A stretch of DNA of 64,000 nucleotides. Source: Rhizomucor pusillus (Eukaryota > Mucoromycota > Mucoromycetes > Mucorales > Lichtheimiaceae). The notes beneath the pieces were generated by a model, which searched no databases, was not told the origin of the DNA, and was given only the letters and a program-made list of their open reading frames with translations. The position numbers were made by a program, and so were the translations under genes. Positions 52,704-57,589 of this stretch are shown here, in pieces. The first letter of the stretch is position 1; each line of letters begins with the position of its first letter. The DNA is taken from assembly GCA_900175165.2 (NCBI GenBank), contig FWWN02000627.1:253036-317035 (forward strand), read 5' to 3'.

Positions 52704-55666
52704 TTAATTTCGCGATAAATGGCGGTCCAACAGCTTTTGCCATTCCCGCGCCATTTGACAATAAAACTGGTGTTGTACATTAGCAAGATCCCCAACAAGG
52801 ATATCAAAGTACTTTGCAGTCAGCTTGAAAAATCTTGGGAGCTCGTCCACCAACTGCGCATTGATCGAAACATATGCATCTGCTGACTCTTGGAGGGTCT
52901 TGTCGGGTGTGTCGCCTTTGGACTTGATGTCACGTACACGGTCGTAATCCAATAACTTTTGCGCCCGTTTTCGAATCACTTGCATAGGGTTATCAAACAC
53001 CTTGAGAAACTCGTCTATTCGTGGGTACACGTAGCTTTGCACTTTGGTGTCCTGCATATATTAAGGTTAATTGGAACGGTATAGCAATGCTAATAATATA
53101 TTTATAAAAACACATGCCAATTCCCGGGTCATTGCAGACGAATACATGGCCGTCGATTTTGTAAAGTCTTGGAAACCTTGCAAGCTTTTAACTCGCACGC
53201 CTCCCCATGATCCGTACAAAGACTCCAAACTCTCTGCAAGCACACGTAGATTCTCAAAGTGGTTCTTGACCTGCCGCACCCATCCTTGGATATCTCGCGC
53301 AAGTTGCCGTGCAATTTCCTGCTGCTCTTCAAACTGTAAATACAATGCGTCGAACAATGCGTCCTGCGTTGCCTCTGCCGAAAAGCCGGTCGCTTGCTTG
53401 AATTGCTGCGCTCGGCGCGTCAACTTTTTGTTAATGCCGTGCCTACACACAACACCGCGGCGTTGTTAAGGGTTGCAATTATAGCGCATCAGTCGAATTT
53501 CAACAATACTTACACAACCTAGCGGAAAAGTAAGGTTAACCGCCTGTCACAGATACATGTGATCACTGAAACGAGGACTTACATTGATGTCATTCTTTTT
53601 CTTGTCGCCCACAATCTTCTCAACAATATCTTTCCTCCGTTTAATCTCGTTAATGTGGTCTGCTACTTGCTGTATTTCCTGCGTTGCCGCAGCGAGGTCG
53701 TCGTGATCTGGATGGTCCGTGGGTGTCAACAAGAATATTTCCTACATGATATCATCAGCAACCACGGTGTATACGCAGCTTCAATGACATATGCTCACTC
53801 TTAACAATAGCGGGTATTTAAGTACTCGTTGCACAGGCTTGATCAAAAGACTTCCAAGGTCCCAGCTTGCGGTCAGACCTTGCATTTGTATCCGGCATTC
53901 ATCGAAAAATGGTTGGGTATCAGGCCTGTTCTCTAATTCTTGCAGTCTCAAGACAGCATCCTCGTGATTCTTGCAGTACTCGCAATAAATGGCATCAATT
54001 TGCTCCATCTATGCAGTGTACAGTCAATATCTGGCTACAGACGCGTTAAATTTCCTCTGTCAACTACTTGCCATTTCTCGGAATGCAAGGCCTACAGTCG
54101 TTCCATCCGATACTTCATCGTCATCGTTATCATCGCTGTGGTCGACGCAAGTCGCTTGCGTAAGTCGAGAGACAAACTCATCCTCAAACTGAGTAATATC
54201 CAGCAAGTTCGAGAATAATGTCTTGACATCGGATTTGTCGAGCGGCGACGTTGAAGTACACGCATGGTCGTAGTAGACTTCTTTGACAACGACCATATCG
54301 TTCTGGTAAGAACGTTCTGTATCTATCAGCTCCTTTATTACTTTGGCGCGTTTGACTTTTCGTGATGCTTTTTCGTGCGGTTTGCCGCTCGGTTGTGGAG
54401 AAATAGGTAAAGATGTTGTTGTTGTACAAGAAGTAACTGTATCAGTTCCTGACACTGGTCTATCTTCTGTTGCGGGCGTGATGGGTTCTCTGGATGTAAC
54501 GACGATGGAGTCTTTTAGACTTGGCGACGATGTTGAGGATGGGTGTTGCTGGTTGTGGTCGTGGCCGCTTAGCCAGTTTGCCAAGGCGGCACCGTAGTGC
54601 CATGCTCGTTTTGATGCGGATTCGGTTGTAGCAAGGGAAGATGTGGCGGAAGAGGTGGACACTGTGCTGTTTCCTGTGCCTGTTCGTGCTATGGATGGTA
54701 AATGCAGACCGGAGTTGGACGGGGAATTAAGGTTAGCCATAGAAGGCTTTTTGCTAGTGATGGGTGGTGGCCGGCTGTCAGCCGTTCGGTTTGATGGTTT
54801 GCGGTGGACTGAGGAGCGCGGTGATGAGGATATACGTCGTGTAGGAAGTTTGTGGGATGATTCATCGTCGACATTATGTTCAATTCGTTTGCTAAGTTCT
54901 GCAACAAAGGATCCGCTGCGTGGAACTTGAGGGGTATCGCTGTCTATGACATTGTTGTTGTTGTTAATCGTCTCTATAGGTGATGGTCTCGGCGGTCGTA
55001 CTAAAGGCTTGGCAGGTATGCTCGTTGGTGGTTTGGAGTAATCAGATTTACTGTTTCGGATGTAAGTTGATTCCGGACGCTTAGGAAACGGCAGTGGCTA
55101 GAACCATCGAAATAGCATCAGAGGCAAGATACGCTTCCTATTTCGTCATTATTTTATACCTGTGCATTTTCTTTCTGCTGGAACCTAGCTCGAATGTCTT
55201 GGAAAGCAAGCGACGTCTCGTCCACGTTTGAATTATGTTCTTTCTGCTCGGGAAAATTTTCTTCGGTCTCTTTGGAGGATCGAATATGTGATTGTACATC
55301 AGATGCGTAACTTGTCACAGAGGTGGCTACGGTGCCGGTGCTCGATGGAGAAATGAGCGACTCGGATGACGGGCTCGGCAGAGGATCGTGTGGTCGGTTA
55401 GTGTATGTGGTTGCTCTCAGAGACGGAGGTTTTGTTGGAGGAGGAGGAGGTCGTTTCGGTGCTGCAGTTGTAGTTACTGGAGGAACAATGTCTGCGCTTG
55501 AACGTCGATCTTGTTCAAATACGCGGGATAAGCGGTCTACTGCATTTTCTCCCCCATGCGAGAATGCGACTGTGCGCGCTCTAGACTGTGAATGCGCCAA
55601 CGACGCTCTCTGGCGCGGTCTACTTTCTAATGTCCTTGAGAAGGCATCCTGGCGATCGACGTCCAT
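52704..55666 (-). CDS. DH-BAR Rho guanine-nucleotide exchange factor, Tuba/Gef1-like
   Basis: Seven exons read leftward: 55666-55160, 55097-54072, 54008-53799, 53741-53583, 53518-53514, 53442-53112, 53051-52704. The product has 861 residues. The first ~390 residues are low complexity with proline-rich stretches (KRPPPPPTKPPS). The DH domain starts at KRAKVIKELIDTERSYQNDM and includes LGSLLIKPVQRVLKYPLLLR, its signature helix. No PH domain follows; instead there is a BAR-like helical region (VVHGINKKLTRRAQQFKQAT, then FFKLTAKYFDILVGDL). DH-BAR without PH is the layout of Tuba-type and fission yeast Gef1-type Cdc42 activators, which act in polarity and septation. Intron 2 (54071-54009) has a GC donor, and exon 5 has only 5 nt. 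Both are required by the frame. Confidence 0.87.
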
Positions 55667-55929: not shown

Positions 55930-57589
55930 CTATATGACTACAAATACTTTTCCTCGGCTTCGAATGAACCGCAAAATGATAGCTGTGAGGCCAGCAGCTA
56001 CTGTTAACGAACCTGAAAACTGGATTGCTGCTGTCCAGCCATACGCGCTTTGGAGAAGACCAATAAGCGGCGTACCAAGCAAGTTACCGCAGGTCGTAAG
56101 CAAGTATGCCATACCGATGCCTGCCTGGATGTTTTCTACACCGACGATTTCTGCTGTTACTGGCGGGATCAATGACACGAAACCGCCTCCAGTCAAGCCA
56201 AACAAGACACAGTAGGCAACGAAAGCTCCAAAGGTCGACGAAAATTGCCACACAACCATAGTGAAGATACCTACAGACGCGGTAAAATTAGTAAGCTGTG
56301 CCAGTCATATGTAAAGGCTCTAGAGTCTTACCAGAAAAGAAAGTGAAGAGCGCCATGACAGTCAAACGACCATAGCGGTCGCCAACGAAGCCGAGGGATA
56401 TACGGCACACAGCATTACAAGCGGACATGATGGATACAAGACTAGAGCCCATAGATGCATCCACGCCAATCACGCCAGCGTAAGTTGGAGCCAAAAAGAA
56501 GGGAGCAACGTAGCCAAAAGGTACGAGGAATGCAAATACTAGGAAAATGCAGAACGAGAAATTCAACAACTTTGTATCAATAAGTTTCCACCATTTGCCG
56601 CCTGCTGATGGAGGTCGGAATCGTGGACGTGCAAGAGCTGTGGCGATACACAGCAAACCAAATCCTAGACCACCAAGCGCACGCAAAGAGTTGCGATAGC
56701 CAGCGGACTGGATCAGCGACTGTGACATTGGGGATAGGCACACACCGCCAATTCCAGAGCCACTCACTGCCAAACCAGTAGCGAATGCACGGTTCTTATT
56801 GAACCACTGAGCAGGAAGAGCGACGGAAGGAGTAAAGACGAAGCTTGCGCCGATGCCAAAAAGAATTCCCTGAGCGAGGTAGACATGCCAAAGCTGCGTA
56901 GCGTAGCTGGCCAACACTAAGCCGAGAGGTGCCAAAATTGTTCCAATAAGCATGGTAAATCGGTAGCCGATCTTTCTGATAATTGGTGATACGAAGAGAC
57001 CAGTTGATAACATGAGAGCATTCTGAGAAGTGCCGACAAAAGCGATTTTGAACTGGGTCGTTTGTCCAGCATAAACTTCATTCAAGTATCTGGAACAAGA
57101 TCAAAGTCAGCGAGTGCCCTTTTTTTTTCTATTTTTCTATTTTTCCTTTTTACGGTTCAACGATACCGAATATATTACTTACAGTTTATGAAAGTTGCCC
57201 CAGGTGAAGACGGTACCAAAGACAGTAAAGTTAACGAGGAAGGTGGATAATACGACGAGCCATCCTGGATTTCGAATGCCTTCGGTCCAGTAAGGTTCAC
57301 CAGGCACTGGTTCGCCTTTGGAGTCGTCTTCTAAGGCTGCTTTCTTGCCATCCACTGTTTGCTGCGACGCAGCAGCTACGCTTTGCCGGGTTCGGGTTTT
57401 TGAAAGGGTAGTTGTAATTTCCTGGAGGGAGCCGAGTGTGGGGAAAGGTGCACATTCTACAAGGCCAGGATAGCCTTCTTCCTCGGCATCCTTGTTCTCT
57501 TGTGATCCCACTATGGTATGCTTCTCTGGGTCATAGACTTCAGTGTGGTCGTCAGGGATTACTTTCTCCTCATCGTGGCCGGTTGTCAT
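55930..57589 (-). CDS. MFS transporter, monocarboxylate-transporter-like
   Basis: Three exons read leftward (57589-57183, 57089-56332, 56270-55930) encode 501 residues. The first ~105 residues are a hydrophilic, acidic cytosolic tail, after which GWLVVLSTFLVNFTVFGTVF begins the first of about 12 spans. Typical monocarboxylate-porter motifs are visible: RNPGWLVVL just before span 1, QWFNKNRAFATGLAVSGSGI in the middle, and GFVGDRYGRLTVM in the loop between the halves. The family carries monocarboxylates or related metabolites across the plasma membrane or an organelle membrane. The substrate cannot be read from sequence. It shares the minus strand with the DH-BAR gene, 263 bp away. Confidence 0.9.

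What the first reader, a model, noticed from the sequence alone, without database searches (positions are those of the whole stretch)
53443..53582. 5-nt micro-exon in the DH-BAR GEF
Read on the minus strand, exon 4 ends at a GTAAGT donor (phase 0). After a 64-nt intron ending TAG, the bases GTTGT are followed at once by another GTAAGT; 71 nt later a TAG leads into GCACGGCATTAAC. Including GTTGT gives DIN-VV-HGINKKLTRR in frame. Skipping it leaves the frame broken. All four borders are canonical. Exons this short are rarely annotated and usually missed by gene finders.
Basis: seen in the sequence. Interest (0 to 1): 0.75.

Follow-up and report, generated by a model that had tools for sequence, protein, structure and literature searches.

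The report
Five-nucleotide exon in fungal GEF gene
A mould gene for a Rho-type signalling protein very probably contains a coding exon only five letters long, which seems to be shared by distant relatives and is garbled or lost in many public models of the gene.

Summary
A minus-strand DH (RhoGEF) + BAR gene of seven exons, 859 codons, has GTTGT (53518-53514) between a 64-nt and a 71-nt intron, both GTAAGT...TAG with a TTAAC branch-like site. Including GTTGT gives DIN-VV-HGINKK; skipping it or keeping either intron stops translation within 12 codons. Among shuffled inserts 0.8% held a frame-restoring canonical micro-exon, 0.13% one of 5 nt.

Homologues decide the matter. Two residues followed by HG recur at this place. 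Of 95 Mucoromycota models among the 120 listed homologues, 28 are intact there and 55 break right after the residue matching N634; 0 of 17 chytrid models are disturbed. Some broken models translate what look like the unspliced donors. A paralogue has AG|ATATC|GTAAGT in its DH-BAR linker, weaker support.

Best reading: an old, constitutive 5-nt micro-exon just before the BAR domain, often missed by gene finders. Ultra-short fungal micro-exons are already in print, so this is a new member of a known kind. No RNA reads and no genomic DNA of another species could be examined.

The parts
55160..55666 (-). exon 1, start codon at 55666
   Evidence: in-frame ATG, GTATAA donor; the start codon is inferred
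54072..55097 (-). exon 2 (N-terminal part and start of DH domain); followed by a GC-AG intron 54071-54009
   Evidence: the junction FREM|MEQ matches homologues such as FRQMMSRID
53799..54008 (-). exon 3 (DH domain)
53583..53741 (-). exon 4 (end of DH domain and linker ...DKKKNDIN)
53519..53582 (-). intron 4, 64 nt, GTAAGT...CTAG, branch-like TTAAC 17 nt from its end
53514..53518 (-). micro-exon GTTGT (phase 0 to phase 2; codes V and two bases of V)
   Evidence: only hit of the canonical micro-exon scan in the insert; residues shared by homologues
53443..53513 (-). intron 5, 71 nt, GTAAGT...GTAG, branch-like TTAAC 23 nt from its end
53118..53442 (-). exon 6 (HGINKK..., H0-like segment and BAR helices); followed by a GC-AG intron 53117-53052
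52704..53051 (-). exon 7 (end of BAR domain, stop codon)

Best explanation
GTTGT at 53518-53514 (minus) is a real, constitutively included 5-nt coding exon of a DH-BAR Rho/Cdc42-type exchange factor. It joins the end of the DH domain to the H0-like segment that opens the BAR domain. Each flanking intron is short and carries its own donor, branch-like site and acceptor, so the two are most likely recognised by intron definition and removed one after the other (inferred). Inclusion is needed because 5 nt is not a multiple of three: each simple mis-splice stops right behind the DH domain (shown by translation). The arrangement is probably old, perhaps present in the ancestor of Mucoromycota (inferred from protein models only; I would put about 0.75 on this part), and is missed in many public models. 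The confidence given is for the exon itself.
For: Canonical borders and frame; the donors on either side are the only two full GTAAGT among the gene's six; TTAAC branch-like sites in both introns; shuffle rates of 0.8% and 0.13%. Homologues show two residues and then HG here (VVHG, MVHG, IVHG; VIHG in chytrids after a linker two residues shorter); in 26 of 34 further, mostly ascomycete or unnamed, proteins the aligned pair is VR followed by xG. 28 of 95 Mucoromycota models are intact; 55 of 95 are disturbed immediately after the residue matching N634 while the stretch before it still fits a loose pattern; 0 of 17 chytrid models are disturbed. Five broken models continue 'VC' (what an unspliced GTATGT donor gives; chance 2e-10) and six continue 'IVY' (what ATHGT followed by an unspliced GTATGT gives; chance 9e-10) (the binomial treats related species as independent, so true chances are larger). 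All four unnamed metagenome homologues are intact; three of them (P0009, P0018, P0021; sources lgn/jgi) lie on contigs of 2.9-4.0 kb and run cleanly through the junctions from residue 416 on, as spliced transcripts would. The paralogue has AG|ATATC|GTAAGT with the same phases (an exact 5-nt hit in 0.025% of shuffles).
Against: No RNA reads for this organism. No genomic DNA of another species could be read (searches found none), so the 5-nt size elsewhere is inferred from protein models. Twelve of the 67 non-intact models are disturbed earlier or could not be anchored, and five Mucor/Parasitella paralogue models read DKN-V-INKK, which may be a real difference and not an error. In Glomeromycotina only 1 of 21 models is intact, so support there rests on few residues. 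'VS' after the junction (two models) is not significant (0.055). In the paralogue the linker is longer (31 residues from RKD to the junction against 18) and diverged, with no HG; the first donor is GTAGGT; the second intron has no YTRAY site in the scanned range; and 25 single-intron joins are also in frame there. Short contigs for P0009, P0018 and P0021 do not prove that they are transcripts.
Confidence: 0.93

Rival explanations
1. One intron with a weak donor inside intron 4 (53556 GTATCT or 53550 GTGACA) and the normal acceptor at 53443; the protein then carries DINVSPRFSDHM(YL)-HGINKK, that is 9-11 residues in place of VV.
For: Both joins are in frame and keep HGINKK. 16 of 95 Mucoromycota models show inserts of this general type at this place.
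Against: Intact homologues have exactly two residues here (28 of 95 Mucoromycota). The donors are poor while a full GTAAGT lies upstream. It leaves the internal TAG-GTTGT-GTAAGT and the branch-like TTAAC of intron 4 unexplained.
Confidence: 0.03
2. One longer intron from 53582 to a downstream acceptor (53424 or 53406), giving an H0-shortened protein (DIN-LTRRAQ... or DIN-QFKQ...), as the only product or as a real alternative isoform.
For: Both are in frame. 30 of 95 Mucoromycota models join straight to a point downstream, which at first sight looks like conservation of such a form.
Against: The resumption point differs between models, as expected of a gene finder picking any in-frame AG. The lost residues recur in intact models and chytrids. 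The acceptors AAAAAG and GCGCAG lie inside coding sequence that aligns with homologues.
Confidence: 0.03
3. The exon is real but its inclusion is regulated, or the insert is removed by recursive splicing, so that skipping or retention yields a truncated DH-only protein as a controlled product. (Not exclusive with the best explanation.)
For: The simple mis-splices stop 2-11 residues after N634 (stops at codons 637, 638 and 646), leaving the whole DH domain and no BAR domain. A glucose-dependent 20-nt microexon switch is reported in Trichoderma (PMC11121469, passages seen).
Against: No expression data. The splice signals look strong and constitutive. A stop near the junction is expected for almost any frameshift.
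Confidence: 0.08

Closest known systems
One-nucleotide exon of CYP621A in Fusarium (PMC12940212; abstract and part 1 of 3 of the text read)
   Same: Fungal ultra-short exon between two introns, inferred by comparison of orthologues, not a multiple of three, needed to keep a conserved motif, a problem for annotation.
   Different: 1 nt against 5 nt; a P450 in one ascomycete genus against a DH-BAR exchange factor over several Mucoromycota groups; there SRA reads confirm it, here none could be examined.
Conserved, misannotated plant microexons such as 1-nt APC11/VPS55 and a 5-nt rice example (PMC8831610, PMC4674806; abstract starts and passages seen)
   Same: Old and often absent from annotations; GTRAGT donors reported for the VPS55 case; intron definition with removal of the two introns one after another proposed for APC11.
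   Different: Plants; confirmed by RNA-seq and RT-PCR.
Trichoderma virens Xlr2 20-nt microexon (PMC11121469; abstract start and passages seen)
   Same: Fungal microexon not a multiple of three; when it is not expressed, shorter products are predicted.
   Different: Regulated by glucose; 20 nt; transcription factor.
Fungal DH-BAR proteins such as MsgA, and human Tuba/DNMBP (PMC7840665; passages seen)
   Same: DH domain with a BAR domain in place of PH.
   Different: Nothing on gene structure in that paper's main text (0 hits for 'exon' and 'intron').

Membership tests
Ultra-short internal micro-exon (15 nt or less) | Acceptor, 1-15 nt, donor, with canonical borders and two introns of ordinary length | tested here: met
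   TAG|GTTGT|GTAAGT; introns 64 and 71 nt, the gene's others 57-66 nt
Ultra-short internal micro-exon (15 nt or less) | Inclusion restores the reading frame and a conserved peptide | tested here: met
Ultra-short internal micro-exon (15 nt or less) | Present in mature mRNA | not testable with these tools
   No RNA reads at hand; P0009, P0018 and P0021 are only indirect
DH-BAR (Tuba/DNMBP-like) exchange factor | RhoGEF (DH) domain followed by BAR domain | tested here: met
   Pfam PF00621 137.5 bits, PF03114 61.8 bits; several homologues are named dynamin-binding protein or scaffold protein Tuba by a source
DH-BAR (Tuba/DNMBP-like) exchange factor | SH3 domain(s), present in many relatives but not in all | tested here: not met
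   none in the 859-aa model; the four best hits P0001-P0004 list none either, many other Mucorales do
DH-BAR (Tuba/DNMBP-like) exchange factor | Exchange activity on Cdc42 or another Rho GTPase | not testable with these tools
   biochemistry needed
N-BAR (amphipathic H0 helix before the BAR domain) | Amphipathic H0 segment aligned with BIN1/amphiphysin | tested here: inconclusive
   The alignment to BIN1 2fic starts at VHGINKKLTRR; a helix 246-266 is predicted in P0003, but its start, with the micro-exon residues, has pLDDT under 50; hydrophobic moment 0.44, reached by 2.5% of shuffles, weaker than several other helices of the protein

The most novel reading that the evidence does not exclude
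A 5-nt micro-exon kept since the ancestor of Mucoromycota (including arbuscular mycorrhizal fungi) acts as a splicing checkpoint: failure at it truncates the exchange factor exactly between the catalytic DH domain and the membrane-binding BAR domain, so its inclusion rate sets the balance of tethered to untethered exchange factor.
Probability: 0.1. Interest if true: 0.75.

Novelty: new member of a known kind. Interest (0 to 1): 0.5.

Why it matters
If confirmed by RNA, this is among the shortest fungal coding exons known to me and an unusually old one. It shows how one missed 5-nt exon can corrupt many public models of a gene family (67 of the 95 Mucoromycota models studied are not intact) just where the BAR domain begins. 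It offers a ready test case for gene finders and for how a spliceosome working by intron definition handles an exon too short for both of its splice sites to be bound at once.

Tried and rejected
Scans of prokaryote genome contigs and of viral contigs for a fungal DNA relative gave no relative. The bare motif YAG-N5-GTRAGT was rejected as evidence by itself, since in the window it is not clearly above chance. The alignment hot spot at residue 513 was first suspected to reflect the GC-AG intron 2; it is mostly a longer stretch in Glomeromycotina, and the FREM|MEQ join agrees with homologues. The hot spot at 489, with more disturbed models (68 of 101) than the junction, and that at 719 (39 of 101) look like true loop variation. 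Foldseek's 50 listed rows were all DH-containing structures and added nothing on the BAR part. A first look at ascomycete hits by regular expressions matched nothing and was replaced by alignment. The first exon join was one base off at exon 2 and was corrected. Literature: seven searches for micro-exon/microexon with fungi, Mucor, Mucoromycota, fungal genomes or guanine nucleotide exchange factor listed no paper whose title or abstract start concerns this exon; two searches showed only 25 of 61 and 15 of 41 papers, and only this open-licence library was searched.

Full report
WHAT IS THERE. The finding lies in a minus-strand gene at 55666-52704 of a 24.45-Mb genome. Joining seven exons gives 859 codons with no internal stop. 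Pfam finds RhoGEF (DH) at 422-612 and BAR at 639-851. The four best protein hits are from Fennellomyces, Zychaea, Circinella and Phascolomyces at 70-72% identity over residues 430-859, so the source is probably a mucoralean mould near these genera; the placement is mine, from names. Introns are 62, 63, 57, 64, 71 and 66 nt. Donors are GTATAA, GCAAGT, GTGAGC, GTAAGT, GTAAGT and GCATGT, so the donors of the two introns beside the micro-exon are the only full GTAAGT. All six introns have a YTRAY branch-like site, 9-37 nt from the end.

THE MICRO-EXON. Exon 4 ends in phase 0 at AAT (53583). Intron 4 (53582-53519), GTTGT (53518-53514), intron 5 (53513-53443) and exon 6 follow, reading DIN-VV-HGINKK. 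Without GTTGT the product ends ...DINARH* at codon 638; with intron 4 kept it stops at 646, with intron 5 kept at 637. I enumerated GT-AG joins between exons 4 and 6. Other in-frame solutions exist, notably a weak donor at 53556 or 53550, or acceptors at 53424, 53406 and 53397 inside coding sequence, but none has strong sites at every border and keeps HGINKK at the two-residue spacing.

CHANCE. The bare motif is not rare (3 found, 1.65 expected in the window; 21 of 100 shuffles reach 3). In 20,000 dinucleotide shuffles of the insert interior, a YAG plus 1-27 nt plus GTRAGT/GTATGT arrangement with introns of at least 45 nt appeared in 2.2%, of frame-restoring length in 0.8%, exactly 5 nt in 0.13%, and 5 nt coding [V/I]V in none. 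GTTGT was the only hit in the real insert.

CONSERVATION AND THE TRAIL OF BROKEN MODELS. The search found 383 homologues and listed 120, which were studied. 118 of the 120 were aligned (P0067 and P0108 were dropped by my length limit). I sorted all 120 by genus name, from memory, into 95 Mucoromycota, 17 chytrids, 2 Basidiobolus, 2 Zoopagales and 4 unnamed. In the 95 Mucoromycota: 28 have exactly two residues between the residue matching N634 and HG (QG and HS were accepted too); 30 jump from that residue to a point downstream; 16 carry an insert before HG; 1 is one residue short; 8 are otherwise garbled behind it; 10 differ already before it; 2 were not anchored by the pattern. So 55 of 95 break immediately after the same residue. 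By group the intact share is 20 of 50 Mucoromycotina (with Calcarisporiella), 7 of 24 Mortierellomycotina and 1 of 21 Glomeromycotina. All 4 unnamed models are intact; both Basidiobolus models and the Syncephalis model have HG one residue nearer, and the Thamnocephalis model has no motif. In the alignment 55 of 101 non-chytrid proteins have a gap or insert of 3 or more within two residues of the junction, and 0 of 17 chytrids. Only one region scores higher, the variable acidic loop at 489 (68 of 101). By pattern 16 of 17 chytrids are intact, with a linker two residues shorter before the junction; the seventeenth, P0115, escaped the pattern but is intact in the alignment.

The broken models seem to betray the DNA. 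Five read ...-VC behind the junction, which is what GTATGT gives if the first donor is not spliced, and six read ...D-IVY, which is what ATHGT followed by an unspliced GTATGT gives: a gene finder that found the acceptor but not a donor 5 nt later. Chance by residue frequencies is 2e-10 and 9e-10; species are related, so the true chances are larger; 'VS' (two models) is not significant (0.055). Three unnamed proteins on contigs of 2.9-4.0 kb (P0009, P0018, P0021) run through the junctions from residue 416 on cleanly and carry VV or MV before HGINK, as expected of spliced transcripts, although I could not inspect those contigs. In a second search, 26 of 34 proteins examined (P0121-P0154; the named ones mostly ascomycetes, the rest unnamed or animal-like) have VR followed by xG at the aligned place, as in ESD-VR-xGLSKAF. 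A V-x-x-G pattern here is thus probably older than Mucoromycota; whether the exon is, I cannot say.

PARALOGUE. Contig C40 of the same genome holds a diverged DH-BAR gene. In its DH-BAR linker it has TTTTAG|ATATC|GTAAGT (L002 positions 1319-1315, minus), with phases 0 to 2 if the donor GTAGGT and acceptor CAATAG are used. An exact 5-nt hit appeared in 0.025% of shuffles. Against it: the linker before the junction is 31 residues from RKD against 18, there is no HG, GTAGGT is a lesser donor, the second intron lacks a YTRAY site in range, and 25 one-intron joins are also in frame. I count it as suggestive.

WHERE IT SITS IN THE PROTEIN. VV stands between the DH and BAR domains. In a model of the Circinella homologue P0003 (mean pLDDT 81.9) the matching residues lie at the start of a helix 246-266, but in a stretch (242-250) with pLDDT under 50, ahead of BAR helix 277-327. 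BIN1 (2fic) aligns from VHGINKKLTRR onward, which recalls the H0 helix of N-BAR proteins (H0 is recalled knowledge). The hydrophobic moment is moderate. Models that join downstream lose part or most of this segment.

MECHANISM. Shown: sequence, frame, residue conservation, trail of broken models. Inferred: two minimal introns recognised by intron definition and removed one after the other, as proposed for the Arabidopsis 1-nt exon (PMC4674806, passages); constitutive inclusion; origin before the split of the Mucoromycota groups.

NOVELTY. A 1-nt exon is in print for Fusarium (PMC12940212, part read), P450 exons down to 6 bp for Phanerochaete (PMC1184071, passages), and misannotated conserved microexons for plants (PMC8831610, passages). 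Seven searches of one open library listed no paper on this exon (two of the lists were cut). Hence a new member of a known kind, notable for its likely age and for how widely it is misannotated. After checking against the calls I kept the odds; the mended points (chytrid spacing, thin Glomeromycotina support, paralogue linker) bear on the age claim, for which I give about 0.75.

Noticed in passing
54071-54009 and 53117-53052 (minus): Two of the six introns of this gene are GC-AG (GCAAGT, GCATGT); the joins FREM|MEQ and REL|DTK agree with homologues.
   Followed up: partly
52704-52760 (minus): The protein ends soon after the BAR domain (LLDRHLSRN*), while the relatives aligned go on, some to a C-terminal SH3 domain; true shortening or a missed last exon was not decided.
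   Followed up: no
56291-57100 (minus): The next reading frame upstream on the same strand codes for part of an MFS transporter. In Apophysomyces models P0005 and P0019 an MFS domain is fused in front of DH-BAR, which suggests conserved neighbours merged by a gene finder.
   Followed up: partly
L002 1315-1319 (minus; G000 contig C40): Candidate 5-nt micro-exon ATATC in the diverged DH-BAR paralogue.
   Followed up: yes
P0046, P0051, P0054, P0057, P0060: Five Mucor/Parasitella paralogue models share DKN-V-INKK, three residues shorter than Helicostylum DRN-VV-QGINKK; a lineage change of the micro-exon or a shared annotation error.
   Followed up: no
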